The notes beneath the pieces are model-generated. The model did not search any database and was not told where the DNA came from. It saw only the letters and a list, made by a program, of their open reading frames with translations. From Candidatus Poseidoniaceae archaeon (GTDB taxonomy: Archaea > Thermoplasmatota > Poseidoniia > Poseidoniales > Poseidoniaceae), in contig DUHU01000039.1 in the NCBI GenBank assembly GCA_013330765.1, positions 1 through 13,660 of the forward strand: a stretch of DNA of 13,660 nucleotides, given 5' to 3'. A program made the position numbers and the translations under genes. Below are positions 6,246 through 13,355 of the stretch, in pieces; position 1 is the first letter of the stretch, and the number at the start of each line of letters is the position of its first letter.

Positions 6246-7838
6246 TTACTTTCCCCAACGACGGATGTGCGGGATCATCTCCCTCAATTCATCGCTGGAA
6301 TAGACGCGGTTCGAGCTTACGAGCTCGACCAGGCGCGGTTCGCGCACCATTTGCATGATCTCCGCCGGGGACTTCCGTGCGAATTCGTCACGGGTCAGGT
6401 CATGGAGTTGCCGTACCTTCGAGAGGAAGGCCTCACGAGTACGGCGTTGGTATTGGGACGGGTCCAACTTGGTTGGACGCTCCCTGAAGCGAGTCAGGTC
6501 GAACACGTGTCGCCAGTTTTCCTTTTCTGGGACGACCATGATGGCGATGGCCAAGAGGGCGAAGAGGTTCATGCCGATGAGCCACTTCAGCAGCCCATCG
6601 CTGGTCAGCAGCACCACGGCGCCGACGGCCTCCGTGAAGGGCATGGTCAAGGCTCCTGCAACGTGACGGCTTTCGTCGAACACGACGTTGAAGCTGGAGA
6701 AGCTAAAGGCGACTGGAGCGGACAACTCGGTGTTGTCGTGCTCCATCATGGACGCGACAAGGGCGGTGAAGTAACGCTCGTTTCCGTACCAGGCGTTGTC
6801 GCCTTGGTCGATGCCTTGGCTGTCCGTGGTCCAGCAGGTGGCCGCGTCACGGCCCTCGTACTGAGGACTGTCACACTGCATTTTCCCGGTGAGTTCCGCC
6901 TTCTCCCACGTCCACATGTGGTTGGCAAAGACGGAGTGGTCGGCAACAAAGACGATGCTTCCCGTCACGCCGATTTGTCCTTGCCCTCCACCAACGGTGG
7001 TGTCAAGCACGCCCTCAACCGGGTAATCCATCCGGACGATCAATCCAGTTTTTCCGTCACCCAACACCGGGTTGGCGATGTTGTCAGGGTTGAAGTCGGC
7101 ACGAGCGATGAACGCTGGCGTGGACGCCGCTGCAAGGACGCTCACGGTGCGCTGGGTTTCAGCCTGGTCCTCAAGGACCTGAATGGCCGTCGGTCGGTGG
7201 AAGAGCACGGGGAGGCGGCAATTGTCGACGTCGCGGCTCATCACCTGTTCTTCGGTGCATGCTTGCCTTGCTTCGTCCTGCATTTCGGTGACGTTGCGAG
7301 TCAAGCTCGAGGCCGCCCAAACACGGCGAGCGTCCGAAGGGAGGGGGTTGCCGTCCGAGCCTTGCATCTCATAGTAGCGGTACGGGTCGACGACAGGGTC
7401 GCCGAAGTACTTCACACCGAAGAGGTCCGCCACAGGTTGGGCGTTGGAAGAGTTGGAGGCGAGGATGACTTTGCCTCCCTTTTTGGTGACGAAGTCGTGC
7501 AGGGCAGAGGCCTCTGCGGCATCGAAGGGTTTCTCCGGGGCCGTGATGATCAGCAGGGTGCGGTGGGGCTCTTTCCAGTCGTTGACGAGCATTGGGGTGG
7601 ACATGGTGTTGGCGATGCTGTACCCCATACCGCCCTCGTCACTGCCATAGGAGGAACGAGCGTCGGTGATCTGTTGGTAACTCAATGTTACTTCTTCCGT
7701 TTCTTCATACGGAGAAAAGACAACCTCTTTTCCTGCACTGACCAGCGTGATGACCGTCCCGGACATGAGAACGGTGACGATGAGCGCCACCAGCAGCCAC
7801 GACTCGAGACCGAGTCCTTTGCCGCCCTCCTCCGCCAT
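6246..7838 (-). CDS. DUF4350-like membrane protein, first gene of the MoxR operon
   Basis: A 530-residue protein with one N-terminal membrane segment (about 12-35), a large extracytoplasmic domain (about 36-400), a second hydrophobic region (about 401-437, strongest 417-437), and a basic cytoplasmic tail of about 90 residues. This topology, with an early segment containing LLIITAPEKPF (95-105), a later VVFDESRH (385-392) and a C-terminal helix, fits DUF4350-type proteins, which are common partners of MoxR and DUF58. In that family the domain resembles a GATase-like fold and the late motif is typically FDE followed by basic or His residues. Six cysteines (194, 207, 322, 335 and neighbours) in the outer domain could form disulfides. 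The function is unproven; a scaffold or sensor for the MoxR complex is plausible. A strong ribosome site (GAGGTGAT) supports the start. Confidence 0.85.
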   Translation of the reverse strand: MAEEGGKGLGLESWLLVALIVTVLMSGTVITLVSAGKEVVFSPYEETEEVTLSYQQITDARSSYGSDEGGMGYSIANTMSTPMLVNDWKEPHRTLLIITAPEKPFDAAEASALHDFVTKKGGKVILASNSSNAQPVADLFGVKYFGDPVVDPYRYYEMQGSDGNPLPSDARRVWAASSLTRNVTEMQDEARQACTEEQVMSRDVDNCRLPVLFHRPTAIQVLEDQAETQRTVSVLAAASTPAFIARADFNPDNIANPVLGDGKTGLIVRMDYPVEGVLDTTVGGGQGQIGVTGSIVFVADHSVFANHMWTWEKAELTGKMQCDSPQYEGRDAATCWTTDSQGIDQGDNAWYGNERYFTALVASMMEHDNTELSAPVAFSFSSFNVVFDESRHVAGALTMPFTEAVGAVVLLTSDGLLKWLIGMNLFALLAIAIMVVPEKENWRHVFDLTRFRERPTKLDPSQYQRRTREAFLSKVRQLHDLTRDEFARKSPAEIMQMVREPRLVELVSSNRVYSSDELREMIPHIRRWGK

Positions 7839-7988: not shown

Positions 7989-8936
7989 TCAGGAGTCTTC
8001 AGGACGGCGTTGACCGCCGAAAAAGGCCAGCATGACGGCCAGAAGAACGAGGGCATTTGGCAGCGGCATCGCGTCGCTTTCGGTTCCAGTCGAAGGATCA
8101 CTCGTTCCGACGTCGTTCGGGTTGCCGACCACTTCGTCTGGGTCTGCTGCGTTCACGTCAACTTCGATGGTCGTGCTTCGACTGGCACCGTCGCCTTCTG
8201 AAGTGACAATCAGCCTGATTTCGCACGTTCGTTCAGGGTGGCTGCTGGACGCTTCCAGGCGGAGTACGACTTCAACGGGGGCTTGCCCGCCGACGTCTGT
8301 AGGCTCCACGACGGTACCTGCAATTCCGTCCAAACCCACAACACTGAGCTGAGGACAGGAACGGATTTCGGCCTCTGCCTCGGTCACGGCGTCCTTTGAA
8401 TTGCCCATGTTGTTCAATTCCAAAGTCATCTCAATCCACGTGCCTGCATCGAAAGGACTCGGCGTGTTTGGGACGTTTGGCTCAAGCCGATGCACCCGAG
8501 GGAGTTCCAAGTCTGCTTCAATTTCTTGCGTGGAGCCGGAATTCGTTTGCGACGCTTCTGTGGCGGTCACGGTCAAAACCATGGCCGTGGCGGGTGCGTA
8601 AGCGCGCACCTCGTCGGCCGTGGTCCCGCTCAACGTGATCTCCACGGTTGTGTTTCCGTTGGCACCCACAGTGATGGGGGAATCGATCTCGGCCTCGAAC
8701 GGTGCGTCGCTTGGCCAATCGAGTTCCATTTCCACTTCAAGTTCAATGGGGCGGTTGTTGGCAATCCAAATCTCCAAGCTGTCACTGATGGTCCAGCGGT
8801 TCCCATCGAGGTTCAGAATCACGCCTTCCTCCACGTCGCTTTCCCATCCCATCTCCCAAGACGGGGCCTCCACTTGGGCCTGAACGGGAACGAGGGGGAG
8901 AAGCAACACGGCGAGCATCAACATCGTTCGGCGCAT
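7989..8936 (-). CDS. Secreted surface protein with C-terminal membrane anchor, last gene of the molybdenum hydroxylase operon
   Basis: A 315-residue exported protein. Residues 1-20 form a signal peptide (MRRTMLMLAV, cleavage likely after VQA). Two beta-rich regions follow (about 25-130 and 145-262). The second contains LELNNMGNSKD (172-182), the pattern of CARDB/NEW3-type Ig-like domains, and two cysteines (194, 238) that may pair. An acidic Pro/Asp/Ser/Thr linker (263-290) leads to a single hydrophobic segment (PLPNALVLLAVMLAFFGG, 291-308), then RR and a short tail. Signal, spacer, helix and basic end describe a C-terminally anchored archaeal surface protein; it lacks an obvious PGF-type sorting motif. 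The ATG is 2 bases from the stop of the FAD subunit gene, with AGGAGG (8944-8949) inside that gene, so it is translationally coupled to the enzyme operon. Its role there is unknown: a substrate-binding or cell-surface partner is possible. Confidence 0.85.
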   Translation of the reverse strand: MRRTMLMLAVLLLPLVPVQAQVEAPSWEMGWESDVEEGVILNLDGNRWTISDSLEIWIANNRPIELEVEMELDWPSDAPFEAEIDSPITVGANGNTTVEITLSGTTADEVRAYAPATAMVLTVTATEASQTNSGSTQEIEADLELPRVHRLEPNVPNTPSPFDAGTWIEMTLELNNMGNSKDAVTEAEAEIRSCPQLSVVGLDGIAGTVVEPTDVGGQAPVEVVLRLEASSSHPERTCEIRLIVTSEGDGASRSTTIEVDVNAADPDEVVGNPNDVGTSDPSTGTESDAMPLPNALVLLAVMLAFFGGQRRPEDS

Positions 8937-8938
8937 GT

Positions 8939-9913
8939 TCAGTCCTCCTGCATGATGGCACGAAGTGCACGCGAGGCAAGCACGCTCACCATCGAACGGC
9001 GATAACGGGGGGGAAGCACCGTGTTGTTCACCGGCTTAATCGCCTTTTGAAGCGCTTTTGACAGACGTTTTCTGCCTTCTTTTTCAGTCCAATCCTCATG
9101 GGCATCCACAAGATCGGCATGCAGGCCGGGAATGCTCTCGAGCCCAGTGCTGGCCACACGAAGGGAGCCTGCATCGCCGGGAATCCAAGAGGCAGCGATG
9201 CCGGCCTCGGGGAAATCCCACGTTTCGCGAACGCGCAGTTTGTGGTATGCCCCAACGCGGCTGGTGGCGTCCTCTGAGAGGTGGACTGAAAGCAAAAATT
9301 CGCCAGGTTGAAGCACGTTCTTCTTCATGCCGTCAAGTTCGAAGAAGTCCTCGAGAGGCATGCGTCGCTCACCGTTTGGCCCGACCAACTCCACCTCGGC
9401 CCCGAGGGCCATGAACGCAGCGGCCATGTCGCCTTGATAGGTGGCCACACAAAGCGTGTTTTGATTGGGAATGACCCGACAGTCTGCGCCCGTCCCACAG
9501 TCTGCTTTGTGGCACCACTCGATGGAGCGACGCCAATCTTCAGACTGATTGTACCAGAAGCACCGAGTGTCAAGGCACAAGTTCCCACCGATGGTCGCAC
9601 TGCGGCGGATGAGGCTCGATGCAACTTTGGCGGCAGCAGCGGCAAGAAGTGGATGCACGACTTCCGAGGTGGCGACATCGTGCAATCGGGCCATGCAACC
9701 GATGCGATCGGACGCCAATGCATCGGCGCCGTCAACGTGGGCCAACGAGATGACGTCGCCCTTTGGATTGAGGTGCCATTTGTAATTGGGCAGGAGATCT
9801 GTTCCCCCAGCCACCCAATCGAAGGGACGCCCTTCAGAGGCGAGGTGTGCAGCGATGGCGCATGCTTCCTCGACCGACTTCGGGCGATGGAGCACAAAGG
9901 GTGGGGTCAGCAT
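8939..9913 (-). CDS. hcrB: FAD subunit of a xanthine oxidase-family molybdenum enzyme, 4-hydroxybenzoyl-CoA reductase beta-like
   Basis: Medium (FAD) subunit of a three-subunit molybdenum hydroxylase. FAD contacts are suggested by AGGTDLLP (35-42) and TIGGNLCL (107-114), and a C-terminal CO-dehydrogenase-flavoprotein-like region starts near 215. Right after GGNLCLDTRC (109-118) is an insertion with cysteines at 118, 134, 139, 145 and 155. In Thauera aromatica HcrB four cysteines in this same place (122, 138, 146, 155 as I recall) bind a [4Fe-4S] cluster absent from ordinary xanthine dehydrogenases. Here 118, 134, 145 and 155 give spacings 16-11-10 against 16-8-9, and the 324-residue length equals that of HcrB as I recall it. 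The ATG overlaps the large-subunit stop as TGATG, with GGAGGGTGAT 5 bases upstream. The reaction could be reductive dehydroxylation of an aromatic CoA ester or an undescribed relative; the family call is firm, the substrate is not. Confidence 0.88.
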   Translation of the reverse strand: MLTPPFVLHRPKSVEEACAIAAHLASEGRPFDWVAGGTDLLPNYKWHLNPKGDVISLAHVDGADALASDRIGCMARLHDVATSEVVHPLLAAAAAKVASSLIRRSATIGGNLCLDTRCFWYNQSEDWRRSIEWCHKADCGTGADCRVIPNQNTLCVATYQGDMAAAFMALGAEVELVGPNGERRMPLEDFFELDGMKKNVLQPGEFLLSVHLSEDATSRVGAYHKLRVRETWDFPEAGIAASWIPGDAGSLRVASTGLESIPGLHADLVDAHEDWTEKEGRKRLSKALQKAIKPVNNTVLPPRYRRSMVSVLASRALRAIMQED

Positions 9914-12717
9914 CAGTCATCACCCTCCATGTGACGCTGCTCTTGTTTGAGCCAAGCACGTCCGGCGTAGCCCATTTCAGCCATGGATTCAGGGTCGGGA
10001 TCGTCGATCGCTGCCCAGCCTTCCAATTGCTCGTCAATCGGGCGCGTCGGATCGAATCCGAAGAGAACACCGTTCACGTACGGCGAGGTGTCTTCCGTCC
10101 GTTGGCGTGCATGGTCCCTTCCGTAGTGTTCCTCGGCCCTTGAGGCAAGTTTCTCCTGAAGCGGGCCGTGCGTGAGACGAGGCGATTCAAGGTCAAGGGG
10201 GTCTTCGACCCCTTCGGATTTCATCCGCTTTTGGATGTCGCCCCACACCACATCGGGCGACAGGGGCAGAGAAGAGGGTCGGACGCCTATGGCGTCGTAC
10301 ACGGCGTTGCACACGGCAGGCAAGATGGGGAGAAGCGGCCCTTCACCGGCTTCTTTCGCACCGAAGGGCCCTTCGGGGTCTGAAGACTCCACGATGATGG
10401 GCGTCACGTGCGGCATCTCGTGCACGGAGGGAATCTGGTACTGAAGCAGGTTCGCGTTCTGCAGGTGCCCGGTTCGCCCATAGGTCATGCGCTCGGAGAG
10501 CACCTGTCCGAGGCCCATGTGGCATGAACCAATGATTTGGCCCTCCACGGCCAAGGGGTTCAGGGCCTTACCACAATCGTGAGCGGCCCATACGCGCGTG
10601 CACTTCACCAAACCGGTTTCGACGTCCACGTCAACTTCTGCAACGTAGGCCGAGAAGGAATAGGCCGGCGCCAAACCCGCAGCAGCGCCCTTGTGGACGC
10701 CACCCATCGGGGGCGAACGGTAGGCGCCACGAGCGATGAGGGCGCCTTTGTCTTCCTGTGCCTTATGGAGGGCCTGAAGGTAGGACACACCTACGGACGG
10801 GTCGTGCTTGTAGACGATGCGTCGGTCGACCATCACCAAGGTCGTGGGGTGGTAGCCAAGCATGTCCCATGCTGCGTTGAGCAGCGATTCACGGATTTCC
10901 ATCGCCGCTCGAATCGCAGCGTTGCAATTCATGAAGGTCACGCGGCTGGAATATGAGCCAAGGTCGACCGGACTCGTGTCGCTTTCGTGGCTGCGAACGT
11001 GGATCATGTCCAAGGGCAAAGCAAGAACTTCCGAGACCACTTGAGCGACGGCGGTGGTCGAACCTTGTCCGATGTCGGCCGCGCCGGTGTGCACGGTCAC
11101 GCCGCCGTCCATGTCCACCTGAATGTGTACCGTGGCGTGGGGGAATCGGTTTGGATCCCAGTGAATCGGAAGACCCGACCCTGAGATGAAAAAGCCGCAC
11201 CCGATCCCGATGCCCTTGCCGAGAGGCATGTTTCGGAATTTCTGGTCCCATCCGCTTTCCTCGCGAACGCGGCGCAGCGCCTCGCGCATGCCGTTGCTGG
11301 TGATGCGGAAGCCAGAGATGGTCCGACTGTGAGGCGGCAACAAGTTGGCGAGACGCAAGTCGATGGGGTCCACCGCCAATTGCTCGGCGATGTCATCCAA
11401 GCCGACCTCCACAGCGCACCTGGTGTTGACCGCACCGTGACCGCGCATGGCACCGCTGGCCGGCTTGTTCGTCCAGACGCGGGCCCCTGTGTAGTGGAAG
11501 GATCCCAATTCGTAGGGAGCGGTGGCCAACACGCCGTTGTAATACGACGTCACGTGGCCGAAGGAAGCAAAGGCGCCTCCGTCAATGAGGGCGTCAACGT
11601 CCAGCCCCGCAACACGTCCGTCTTCGTCCGCATCGAGCTTGACTTCGATGTAGGAAGGGTGACGCCCACGGTTGATCCAATACACCTCTTCACGGTCGAA
11701 GGTGATCCGCACAGGTCGGCCGCTCTTTCGTGCGAGAATGGCCGCACACATTTCGTGAGGGAAGGGATCTGACTTTCCGCCAAAACCGCCCCCGACAAAG
11801 GTCCGAATGACGTTGATTTGGTGCATGGGGACATCGAGCACCGTAGCCAGCGCGCGGTGCGTGTAGTGCGGAACCTGCTGGGGAGTGTAGAGTTGCAAAC
11901 GTCCATTGGCGTCCCAATGCGCCACGACGGCATGGGGCTCAGTGAACCCGTGATGCACGCCCTCAAACCGCCAAGCGCGCCGTGAACTGGCGGCAGCATT
12001 CTCGATGTTGGAGCGGTCTCCAAAGGCCTGGTGGACACGCTTCTGGACGTTGGTGCGTCCGACGTGATACTTCCCTCGCCAGTGAATGGGTTCGTCCACG
12101 TCTTCGAGCCCTTTCCGAGGGTCGAACTCGGGGTCCAATTCTTCGTAATCGACGACGATGGCCCCCAACGCCTCCATGGCCGTCGCTTCGTCCACCGCAG
12201 CCACGCATGCCACCAAGTCACCGACGTGACGGACTTTCTCGACCGCCATGGCATGCTCGTCTTTGGTCACGGGGAGCACGCCGAAGGTCTTCGGCGCATC
12301 TTCACCGGTCGCCACGGCCAACACGCCCGGCATCGCCTCTGCGGCCGAGGTATCGATGGAACGGATACGGGCGTAATGGTGAGGGGACCTCAAAATGCGG
12401 CCAATGATTTCGTTTGGAAGGCGTACGTCATCGCCGTACCATGCCTGCCCGGTGATTTTCGCGTTGGCATCCACCAAAGCGGTCGCTTGACCGACCGTGG
12501 TGCCGGTGCGCAAACGGTCGTGCACGTGATGCCCGGCGGGCTGAGGTTCGTTGCCTCCGACGGATTCGGGAATGCCGTCGAGGTTGCGAGGATCGCTGAC
12601 CGGACGTGAACCGCCTGCACCGGGTGGCGTGAAGCGAAGCTTTCCAGCGACGCGCTTGCCGTCCTTTCTGACGCCTCCACCTGCACCACCGGGTTGCTGA
12701 CGGTATCCACCCGACAC
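9913..12717 (-). CDS. hcrA: Molybdopterin-binding large subunit, 4-hydroxybenzoyl-CoA reductase alpha-like
   Basis: Catalytic subunit of the molybdenum enzyme. Counting from the GTG at 12726 (937 residues), it has a Gly/Pro-rich N-terminal extension (1-70) absent from standard members, then the aldehyde oxidase/xanthine dehydrogenase hammerhead domain (ALVDANAKITGQAWYGDD, 83-100), GGGFGGK (312-318), GAMRGHG (425-431), DIGQGSTT (551-558), GSYSSRVTF (590-598), HDCGKALNP (716-724) and GPFGAKEAGEG (786-796) with Glu795 as the probable catalytic glutamate. GxxRGHG replaces the AFRGFG-type motif of xanthine dehydrogenases and is how I recall HcrA. It lacks the AYRCSFR loop of CO dehydrogenase. A C-terminal extension of about 100 residues (836-937) is also unusual; HcrA is about 769 residues. 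The start at 12717 is preferred because GAGGTGA ends 5 bases before it; the GTG at 12726 lies inside that ribosome site and overlaps the previous stop. Confidence 0.9.
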   Translation of the reverse strand: MSGGYRQQPGGAGGGVRKDGKRVAGKLRFTPPGAGGSRPVSDPRNLDGIPESVGGNEPQPAGHHVHDRLRTGTTVGQATALVDANAKITGQAWYGDDVRLPNEIIGRILRSPHHYARIRSIDTSAAEAMPGVLAVATGEDAPKTFGVLPVTKDEHAMAVEKVRHVGDLVACVAAVDEATAMEALGAIVVDYEELDPEFDPRKGLEDVDEPIHWRGKYHVGRTNVQKRVHQAFGDRSNIENAAASSRRAWRFEGVHHGFTEPHAVVAHWDANGRLQLYTPQQVPHYTHRALATVLDVPMHQINVIRTFVGGGFGGKSDPFPHEMCAAILARKSGRPVRITFDREEVYWINRGRHPSYIEVKLDADEDGRVAGLDVDALIDGGAFASFGHVTSYYNGVLATAPYELGSFHYTGARVWTNKPASGAMRGHGAVNTRCAVEVGLDDIAEQLAVDPIDLRLANLLPPHSRTISGFRITSNGMREALRRVREESGWDQKFRNMPLGKGIGIGCGFFISGSGLPIHWDPNRFPHATVHIQVDMDGGVTVHTGAADIGQGSTTAVAQVVSEVLALPLDMIHVRSHESDTSPVDLGSYSSRVTFMNCNAAIRAAMEIRESLLNAAWDMLGYHPTTLVMVDRRIVYKHDPSVGVSYLQALHKAQEDKGALIARGAYRSPPMGGVHKGAAAGLAPAYSFSAYVAEVDVDVETGLVKCTRVWAAHDCGKALNPLAVEGQIIGSCHMGLGQVLSERMTYGRTGHLQNANLLQYQIPSVHEMPHVTPIIVESSDPEGPFGAKEAGEGPLLPILPAVCNAVYDAIGVRPSSLPLSPDVVWGDIQKRMKSEGVEDPLDLESPRLTHGPLQEKLASRAEEHYGRDHARQRTEDTSPYVNGVLFGFDPTRPIDEQLEGWAAIDDPDPESMAEMGYAGRAWLKQEQRHMEGDD

Positions 12718-12722
12718 GAAAC

Positions 12723-12729
12723 TCACCTC
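12723..12729 (-). promoter_or_regulatory. Ribosome binding site that decides the large-subunit start
   Basis: GAGGTGA on the minus strand covers the stop of the small-subunit gene (12723-12725) and the GTG at 12726. It stands 5 bases before the in-frame GTG at 12717, the standard spacing. Initiation at 12717 therefore fits better than at 12726, shortening the protein by three residues. Confidence 0.6.
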
Positions 12730-13355
12730 GCGTGACCAGGGGGCAATTGCGGCTCGTCAGGACCGGAGGGATGGGGATCTGCATGGGGGTGTGTGGGCGG
12801 CTCAGGGGCCTCTCCTTCACCACGAAGCAATGCTGCGGCGGCCATGACCGATTCCACAATCGGTTGGAATCCTGTGCAACGGCAAAGGTTGCCTTCGATC
12901 GCCTCATTGACCTCTGCAAGCGTTGGACTTGACGTCTGAACGAGCAGGGCTTGTGCAGAAATGAGGAAGCCTGGCGTGCAGAACCCACACTGTGATCCTC
13001 CGTGTTCAGCAAAACAGGTCTGAATTGGAGCCAAGTGATGGCCGTCAGCGAGGCCTTCGACCGTGGTGATGGCACAGCCTTCAACGTCACCTGCAAGTGT
13101 CATGCACGACAGGCGGGGTTGGCCGTCCACAAGCACCGCACAGCAACCGCACGTGCCCAAATCGCAACCTCGCTTAACGCCGAGTTGCCCCACGTTGTCG
13201 CGCAACACATCGAGTAAAACCGCGTTGCTCGGAGCGAGGACCGCGACGGCGCGGTCGTTTACATCCGCTTTCCATACGGTCTTCGGTGCATGAGGCAGCA
13301 TGGGGACACGGGCTTCACCGACCATCCCCGCACCGTCCCTTGGTCGTGCCTTCAC
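12723..13355 (-). CDS. hcrC: [2Fe-2S] iron-sulfur subunit, 4-hydroxybenzoyl-CoA reductase gamma-like
   Basis: Electron-transfer subunit of the molybdenum enzyme. The plant-type [2Fe-2S] site uses GCDLGTCGCC (63-72) and Cys84 in RLSC; the second, helical [2Fe-2S] site uses CGFC (123-126) with CRC (158-160). All eight expected ligands (64, 69, 72, 84, 123, 126, 158, 160) are present. These clusters pass electrons between the molybdenum centre and FAD. At 210 residues it is longer than usual (about 160): there is an N-terminal addition of about 25 residues and a C-terminal tail (from about 179) rich in Pro, His and Glu. The start is uncertain. GTG 13355 has only AAAGG upstream and overlaps a GGGTGA; ATG 13325 or ATG 13301 are in-frame alternatives, the last leaving almost no N-terminal addition. 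It overlaps the large-subunit gene and heads the visible part of the operon. Confidence 0.9.
   Translation of the reverse strand: MKARPRDGAGMVGEARVPMLPHAPKTVWKADVNDRAVAVLAPSNAVLLDVLRDNVGQLGVKRGCDLGTCGCCAVLVDGQPRLSCMTLAGDVEGCAITTVEGLADGHHLAPIQTCFAEHGGSQCGFCTPGFLISAQALLVQTSSPTLAEVNEAIEGNLCRCTGFQPIVESVMAAAALLRGEGEAPEPPTHPHADPHPSGPDEPQLPPGHAR

What the first reader, a model, noticed from the sequence alone, without database searches (positions are those of the whole stretch)
9400..9620. HcrB-type [4Fe-4S] cysteine insertion in the FAD subunit of an archaeal molybdenum enzyme
The sequence directly after the FAD motif GGNLC contains DTRCFWYNQ and then cysteines at residues 134, 139, 145 and 155, replacing the short loop found in xanthine dehydrogenase. 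As I know the family, this insertion is the hallmark of 4-hydroxybenzoyl-CoA reductase and carries a low-potential [4Fe-4S] cluster that reverses the normal electron flow. The spacing (16-11-10) differs from the Thauera enzyme (16-8-9), so it may define a separate archaeal branch. Finding it beside a probable rhodopsin gene suggests an enzyme of anaerobic chemistry working in oxic water.
Basis: partly seen in the sequence, partly recalled or inferred. Interest (0 to 1): 0.82.

Follow-up and report, generated by a model that had tools for sequence, protein, structure and literature searches.

The report
Hydroxybenzoyl-CoA-reductase-like enzyme in marine archaea
The window encodes a three-part molybdenum enzyme related to an anaerobic aromatic-ring-reducing enzyme, with an extra iron-sulfur binding site, and nearly every genome of what appears to be an oxygen-breathing surface-ocean archaeal order carries it, so a core and mislabelled step of their metabolism may be exposed.

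Summary
P0001 (8939-9913, minus strand) has DTRCFWYNQ and cysteines 118, 134, 139, 145 and 155. Its best solved relative is Thauera HcrB, by sequence (E 1.3e-44) and fold (TM 0.84). Cysteines 118/134/145/155 align with four HcrB cysteines and are invariant in 70 sequences of the window's order and 95 others (85 distinct). C139 is dispensable: replaced in 4 of 4 sampled sequences of one genus. Spacing 16-11-10 marks one clade; all 95 HCR-like relatives aligned outside it have 16-8-9.

Aldehyde oxidases (PaoB type) carry four cysteines in the same region, so the insertion does not show reversed electron flow. No rhodopsin lies in the window.

New here: the Mo subunit occurs in 188 of 193 genomes of the order (by inference Marine Group II), usually once. 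It sits in a conserved eight-gene block with MoxR-DUF58. A BoxB-like benzoyl-CoA epoxidase relative occurs in 112 of 127 genomes; a benzoyl-CoA reductase operon in only 4 of 193.

Best reading: a divergent 4-hydroxyaroyl-CoA dehydroxylase feeding BoxB-type ring epoxidation. Substrate and direction are unproven.

The parts
12723..13355 (-). small subunit, two [2Fe-2S] domains (HcrC-like), 210 aa, P0003
   Evidence: Pfam Fer2_2/Fer2; best NCBIfam TIGR03193 163.5 bits, cut-off 257.8
9913..12726 (-). molybdenum-cofactor subunit (HcrA-like), 937 aa, P0002
   Evidence: 1rm6_A E 4.7e-181, 607 bits against 271 for the next chain; TIGR03194 783.7 bits, cut-off 994.6; 42.8% identity to Thauera HcrA over 745 columns
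8939..9913 (-). FAD subunit (HcrB-like), 324 aa, P0001
   Evidence: 1rm6_B E 1.3e-44; TIGR03195 237 bits, cut-off 404.6; model pLDDT 85.6, Foldseek best 1rm6_B TM 0.84
9449..9577 (-). four-cysteine insertion from C113 (GGNLC) to C155; predicted [4Fe-4S] ligands C118 (9560-9562), C134 (9512-9514), C145 (9479-9481), C155 (9449-9451); extra order-specific loop with C139 (9497-9499)
   Evidence: alignment of 50 order, 95 other and HcrB sequences, 20 more
7989..8936 (-). 315-aa protein with apparent signal peptide and C-terminal membrane segment (read by eye), 2 bases after the FAD gene; same place in 20 of 20 order loci
   Evidence: no Pfam match
6246..7838 (-). DUF4350-like protein, conserved block
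   Evidence: PF14258 30.2 bits, cut-off 30.4; 20 of 20 order loci
5098..6228 (-). MoxR-type AAA+ ATPase, conserved block; possible maturation factor (inference)
   Evidence: PF07726 E 1.4e-64; 20 of 20 order loci, 1 of 96 others, many of them short
3747..5060 (-). DUF58 protein, conserved block
   Evidence: PF01882; 19 of 20 order loci
2817..3737 (-).
   Evidence: no Pfam match at E 0.05; no PF01036 match in the genome; 19 of 20 order loci

Best explanation
The operon encodes a heterotrimeric molybdo-iron-sulfur flavoprotein of the 4-hydroxybenzoyl-CoA reductase branch of the xanthine oxidase family. Shown by sequence and fold: the three subunit types, their nearest relatives, and the four invariant cysteines. 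Inferred: these cysteines hold a [4Fe-4S] cluster beside FAD; electrons from a low-potential carrier such as ferredoxin pass [4Fe-4S] -> FAD -> two [2Fe-2S] -> Mo; and the Mo site removes a para-hydroxyl from an aroyl-CoA such as 4-hydroxybenzoyl-CoA. In most of the order the product would enter a ring-epoxidation route through a near-universal BoxB-like di-iron enzyme; in a few lineages it could enter a benzoyl-CoA reductase pathway. MobA-like and XdhC-like maturation proteins near the genes in relatives, and the MoxR-DUF58 genes downstream, probably serve cofactor loading.
For: HcrA and HcrB are by far the best solved relatives, and the HCR models are best for all three subunits. Foldseek puts 1rm6_B first. 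The four ligand positions are invariant. The Mo subunit has Q284, R428 and E795 in common with HcrA and with 100 of 100 aligned relatives, and Ser 319 where xanthine dehydrogenases have the substrate glutamate (xanthine oxidase residue roles recalled). Ucdh, given as 32.7% identical to 4-HBCR, is still a proven dehydroxylase (PMC12771579, section 7 read); the window's Mo subunit is 42.8% identical to HcrA. BoxB-like genes are in 112 of 127 order genomes; the G112 copy matches BoxB 3per at E 5.6e-48 and five copies keep its EExRH and EExxH-type motifs. A 3-hydroxyacyl-CoA dehydrogenase relative lies near it in five of five loci fetched and moaC in three of five. Outside the order, 17 of 27 genomes with the HCR-like gene also have a BoxB-like match, against 22 of 262 overall. 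A bcr-ECH-had-oah operon is in 4 of 193 genomes.
Against: All HCR scores are below curated cut-offs. Four cysteines in the same region also exist in oxidising enzymes. No benzoate-CoA-ligase match above cut-off in 40 genomes, and only 3 of 40 at E 1e-40. No BoxC or BoxB match above cut-off. No benzoyl-CoA reductase match in 189 of 193 genomes, many of them incomplete. The BoxB link was found after the fact, one of five pathway families tried; all f6 hits and the f22 hit are weak (74-87 bits). Counting only strong BoxB hits, 3 of 5 HCR families share it (p 0.022). HCR is described as oxygen-sensitive (PMC12771579), while the order I infer is described as aerobic (PMC6461757).
Confidence: 0.42

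Rival explanations
1. An oxidising enzyme (aldehyde or aroyl-CoA hydroxylase) that uses the [4Fe-4S] cluster as an electron outlet, working like PaoABC.
For: Four cysteines in the same region in PaoB, 5y6q_B and two plasmid-borne homologues; aerobic host by inference (PMC6461757, section 24); no dedicated aroyl-CoA ligase found.
Against: PaoB is distant (E 1.4e-17 against 1.3e-44), with another spacing and without YNQSxxWR; Mo subunit 607 bits to HcrA against 205 to PaoC; a 100/100 branch parts two PaoB-like rows from the window together with HcrB.
Confidence: 0.33
2. A canonical HCR of an anaerobic benzoyl-CoA reductase pathway.
For: Four genomes in four genera carry a benzoyl-CoA reductase operon with had and oah, one beside narGH, and all four have a PF20256 Mo subunit too.
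Against: No such reductase match in 189 of 193 genomes; scores under the HCR cut-offs; HCR-like genes are not within the 13-20 kb fetched around the four reductase operons.
Confidence: 0.12
3. Xanthine or purine dehydrogenase, as published annotation (xdhC, yagS) suggests.
For: PMC9723583 (passages read) reads genes of two MAGs this way, alongside transcription of a purine permease gene.
Against: XDH models are far weaker (XdhB 77 bits against 237, XdhA 509 against 784); Ser replaces the purine-binding glutamate (role recalled). That the genes meant in the paper are these is inferred from the name yagS.
Confidence: 0.05
4. The insertion binds no cluster or another metal; the cysteines are structural.
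For: The insertion is modelled at pLDDT 52-71, though models carry no cofactor.
Against: Alignment with the HcrB cysteines and invariance in 50, 95 and 20 sequences.
Confidence: 0.05

Closest known systems
Thauera aromatica 4-hydroxybenzoyl-CoA reductase HcrABC (1rm6/1sb3)
   Same: Mo, FAD and [2Fe-2S] subunits; FAD subunit with four-cysteine insertion and DTRCxxYNQSExWR; FAD subunit 36.5% and Mo subunit 42.8% identical
   Different: Spacing 16-11-10 instead of 16-8-9, below HCR curated cut-offs, no benzoyl-CoA reductase match in most genomes of the order, presumably oxic host
Ucdh, urolithin C dehydroxylase of Enterocloster bolteae (PMC12771579)
   Same: Three-subunit xanthine-oxidase-family dehydroxylase whose closest characterised relative is 4-HBCR
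   Different: Gut anaerobe, substrate not a CoA thioester; its sequence was not compared here
E. coli PaoABC aldehyde oxidoreductase (5g5g)
   Same: Heterotrimer with a chaperone gene; four cysteines in the same region of the FAD subunit
   Different: Converts aldehydes, periplasmic (PMC3958847, passages), distant sequence, spacing 10-9-19 (counted by eye)
Aerobic CO dehydrogenase CoxMSL with CoxD/CoxE maturation genes (PMC3471820)
   Same: MoxR-type AAA+ gene downstream of an XO-family trimer
   Different: CoxM rows leave only six residues (117-122) where the insertion would be; the partner here is DUF58, not CoxE; role in the archaeon untested

Membership tests
4-hydroxybenzoyl-CoA reductase (HCR) | Four cluster cysteines in the FAD subunit insertion | tested here: met
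   Alignment to 1rm6_B; invariant in 50 order + 95 other rows and 20 more
4-hydroxybenzoyl-CoA reductase (HCR) | NCBIfam equivalog cut-offs TIGR03193/03194/03195 | tested here: not met
   163.5 of 257.8, 783.7 of 994.6 and 237 of 404.6 bits
4-hydroxybenzoyl-CoA reductase (HCR) | Fold of the FAD subunit nearest to HcrB | tested here: met
   Foldseek rank 1, TM 0.84/0.84, E 8.8e-28
4-hydroxybenzoyl-CoA reductase (HCR) | Cysteines converge on one cluster site | tested here: inconclusive
   Insertion modelled at pLDDT 52-71; coordinates not available to measure
4-hydroxybenzoyl-CoA reductase (HCR) | Benzoyl-CoA reductase pathway in the genome | tested here: not met
   PF06050 in 4 of 193 and PF01869 in 1 of 40 genomes; none in the window's 60%-complete genome
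4-hydroxybenzoyl-CoA reductase (HCR) | Reductive dehydroxylation of 4-hydroxybenzoyl-CoA with ferredoxin | not testable with these tools
   needs purified enzyme
Xanthine dehydrogenase | Purine-binding Glu after GGGFGGK | tested here: not met
   Ser 319 in the window, Thr in HcrA; the Glu in XDH is recalled
PaoABC-type aldehyde oxidoreductase | Sequence nearest to PaoB/PaoC | tested here: not met
   67 bits to 5g5g_B against 156 to 1rm6_B; 205 to PaoC against 607 to HcrA

The most novel reading that the evidence does not exclude
Marine Group II archaea share a core, oxygen-compatible 'reduce then epoxidise' route for aromatic acyl-CoAs: an HCR-type enzyme with an order-specific loop beside its [4Fe-4S] cluster strips the para-hydroxyl with ferredoxin electrons, a BoxB-like di-iron enzyme epoxidises the ring, and a membrane-linked MoxR-DUF58 module matures the molybdenum enzyme.
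Probability: 0.2. Interest if true: 0.88.

Novelty: new variant of a known kind. Interest (0 to 1): 0.62.

Why it matters
A published survey reports that Ca. Poseidoniales make the molybdenum cofactor but names no enzyme of theirs that uses it in the section I read (PMC6461757, section 24); its Figure 4 legend does list nitrate reductase narGHI for part of the order. Another paper reads xdh-type genes of two MAGs as xanthine catabolism (PMC9723583, passages). Here a near-universal client is proposed and the xanthine reading is contradicted. If the reductive reading is right, chemistry known from anaerobes runs in oxic surface water, and abundant surface-ocean archaea would take part in turnover of aromatic carbon, with a short list of genes to test.

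Tried and rejected
Rejected: rhodopsin neighbour. Rejected: 'the only molybdenum enzyme of the order': PF00384 matches in 58 of 60 genomes; the one of 755 aa that was checked, in G015, is an FdhF/YdeP-type protein with an FdhD-like gene beside it; PF00174 in 0 of 60. Rejected: a shared regulator of the HCR and BoxB loci; the two HTH_10 proteins match only in the DNA-binding domain. Led nowhere: plasmid searches for true HCR; the rows listed reach 31% (25 of 636 records listed) and 40% (12 of 716 listed) identity, and the rest are under 60%. Neighbour clustering in GC-rich relatives was swamped by spurious frames. Two paper searches for the PaoABC cluster turned up no text stating it, so that cluster is recalled. 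In the Mo-subunit trees HcrA is a long branch and its place is unsure. Paper searches joining HCR, benzoyl-CoA or phenylacetate with Marine Group II, Poseidoniales or Thermoplasmatota gave no title or start of abstract on such a pathway in this order; of their hits I read only PMC6461757 (section 24 and passages) and PMC9723583 (passages) on this order, so a report in the text of the others is not ruled out.

Full report
WHAT IS THERE. On the minus strand, 13355 to 8939, three genes overlap head to tail: a [2Fe-2S] protein, a molybdopterin subunit and an FAD subunit. The FAD subunit P0001 holds the described insertion: DTRCFWYNQ at residue 115 and cysteines 118, 134, 139, 145 and 155. The contig is 13,660 bases long, so it ends 305 bases upstream of the first gene and shows nothing further.

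RELATIVES. Against solved structures the best match of P0001 is HcrB of Thauera aromatica (1rm6_B, E 1.3e-44, 155.8 bits); the next, PaoB, has 67 bits. The Mo subunit scores 607 bits to HcrA and 271 to the next chain. The small subunit was not searched against structures. The HCR models are best for all three subunits in NCBIfam, but all are below their curated cut-offs. Identity to Thauera is 36.5% for the FAD subunit and 42.8% for the Mo subunit.

LIGANDS. The HcrB row aligns its four cysteines with C118, C134, C145 and C155; that these four are the cluster ligands of HcrB I recall. They are identical in 50 of 50 order rows and 95 of 95 other rows, 85 of them distinct, and in 20 of 20 further order sequences read by eye. 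C139 sits in an extension of three residues that only the order has; it is C in 49 of the 50 rows, but A or E in all four sampled sequences of genus g11. A second extra cysteine, at 137, is present in 18 of 50. All 95 rows outside the order have 16-8-9. In the FAD tree the order (14 rows) is one clade (100/100) inside the 16-8-9 relatives; the Mo-subunit trees also give one clade, but HcrA is a long branch there.

NOT A HALLMARK OF HCR. PaoB, 5y6q_B, a Sulfitobacter 'subunit M' and an unannotated Caballeronia homologue have four cysteines in the same region in another pattern: TRC, CNKR, GxGC and C before IA. In the printed alignments not all four fall in the window's columns. PaoABC converts aldehydes (PMC3958847, passages read). 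That its FAD subunit holds a [4Fe-4S] cluster I recall; I did not find it in the library. The insertion therefore argues for a cluster, not for a direction of electron flow.

STRUCTURE. AlphaFold2 on A2 (32 sequences, all from the window or fetched loci) gave pLDDT 85.6 and pTM 0.87, with the insertion at 52-71. Foldseek ranks 1rm6_B first (TM 0.84, E 8.8e-28), then CO dehydrogenase and aldehyde oxidase chains. Coordinates are not exposed, so cysteine distances were not measured.

WHOSE GENOME. A contig of G040, in the same phylum as the window, has the same length (15,161 bases) and match position as record JAKAYL010000041.1, Thermoplasmata archaeon. PMC6461757 (section 24 read) describes Poseidoniales as aerobic and proteolytic, with all four steps of molybdenum cofactor synthesis.

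HOW COMMON. PF20256 (Mo subunit) is in 188 of 193 order genomes, 34 of 34 of the near-complete ones, mostly once each. In the phylum sample, 154 of 389 genomes match P0001; counted from the listing, 125 of these are among 127 order genomes. Outside the order 29 match, 27 of them at E below 1e-40.

CONSERVED BLOCK. In 20 order loci of 12-18 kb the genes FES, Mo, FAD, SIG, DUF4350, MoxR, DUF58, TM lie in the same order on the same strand: all eight in 18; L036 and L039 are cut by a contig end. Upstream genes differ between loci. MoxR was found near the trimer in 1 of 96 loci outside the order, but these are 3.7-19 kb long, so distant copies are not ruled out. In CO-oxidising bacteria coxDEF, with the MoxR-like CoxD, are grouped together and needed to mature CO dehydrogenase (PMC3471820, passages read). 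A maturation role here is an inference by analogy; MoxR-DUF58 pairs also occur alone (recalled). XdhC-like and MobA-like genes lie in the fetched stretch in 10 and 8 of 20 order loci, and in 65 and 64 of 96 others.

MO SITE. Against HcrA the window keeps Q284, R428 and E795, as do 100 of 100 aligned relatives, and has Ser 319 (98 of 100 relatives Ser, 2 Gly; HcrA Thr) where xanthine dehydrogenases have Glu (roles recalled from bovine xanthine oxidase). This speaks against the published xanthine reading (PMC9723583, passages).

PATHWAY CONTEXT. I tried five families. PF01869 is in 1 of 40 order genomes and PF06050 in 4 of 193, in four genera of both families. The four loci share the order 2x HGD-D, 2x BcrAD, ECH, had, (HHE in three), oah, SDR; in G112 had is above and oah just below its cut-off, and narG and narH are above theirs. 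The reductase subunits themselves are below the benzoyl-CoA reductase cut-offs. BoxB (TIGR03225) matches in 57 of 60 order genomes, none above the cut-off; at E 1e-20 in 112 of 127 order and 22 of 262 other genomes. The window's own incomplete genome has only a fragment. The G112 copy matches BoxB 3per at E 5.6e-48; five copies keep the EEQRH and KEESFH motifs. Its neighbours include a 3-hydroxyacyl-CoA dehydrogenase relative in five of five loci and moaC in three of five (L186-L188). BoxC: 0 of 40 above cut-off. Benzoate-CoA ligase: 0 of 40 above cut-off. Outside the order, HCR-like and BoxB-like genes go together in 17 genomes (27 and 22 of 262; Fisher 8.5e-16, not corrected for kinship). 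By family, 5 of 5 HCR families against 8 of at least 37 give p 1.3e-4 (37 is the highest code seen, less two). All f6 hits and the f22 hit are weak (74-87 bits); with strong hits alone 3 of 5 families remain, p 0.022. Lifestyle may confound this.

MECHANISM. Electron path, cluster type, substrate and direction are inferred. Ucdh shows that an HCR relative at 32.7% identity still dehydroxylates (PMC12771579, section 7 read), which raises the reductive reading. The oxic host, the missing CoA ligase and the aldehyde oxidases with four cysteines in the same region lower it. I put reductive dehydroxylation of an aroyl-CoA at 0.42 and an oxidising role at 0.33.

Noticed in passing
L175 (G112 contig C5 27000-46900); L182, L183, L184: Benzoyl-CoA-reductase-type operon with dienoyl-CoA hydratase-like ECH, had and oah in 4 of 193 genomes of the order, in four genera of both families; in G112 beside narGH and a tryptophanase/tyrosine phenol-lyase-like gene. 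Suggests nitrate-linked anaerobic aromatic degradation in rare members.
   Followed up: partly
L181:3959-5155, L185:8799-10046, L186:8271-9407, L187:2549-3709, L188:8377-9714: Near-universal BoxB-like di-iron protein in an acyl-CoA gene cluster, with moaC close by in L186-L188 and a moaE-like gene in L186.
   Followed up: partly
L150:791-3055 and L150:57-863: FdhF/YdeP-type oxidoreductase beside an FdhD-like gene in G015; a PF00384 protein is found in 58 of 60 order genomes, so a second kind of molybdenum or tungsten enzyme is common.
   Followed up: partly
G445: G445 has four PF20256 matches where nearly all others have one (five listed genomes have two); possible extra xanthine-oxidase-family enzymes or assembly mixing.
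   Followed up: no
L135:10700-18000: Many translated repeats (FNPTMVRFR / FQSHDGSIQT) that look like a long CRISPR array in a KSB1 contig.
   Followed up: no
P0001 residues 137-139 and order relatives: Many order sequences have CHKCDCGTGADC, with two extra cysteines beside the cluster ligands; position 137 is Cys in 18 of 50 and 139 in 49 of 50. A second metal site or an oxygen shield is possible.
   Followed up: partly
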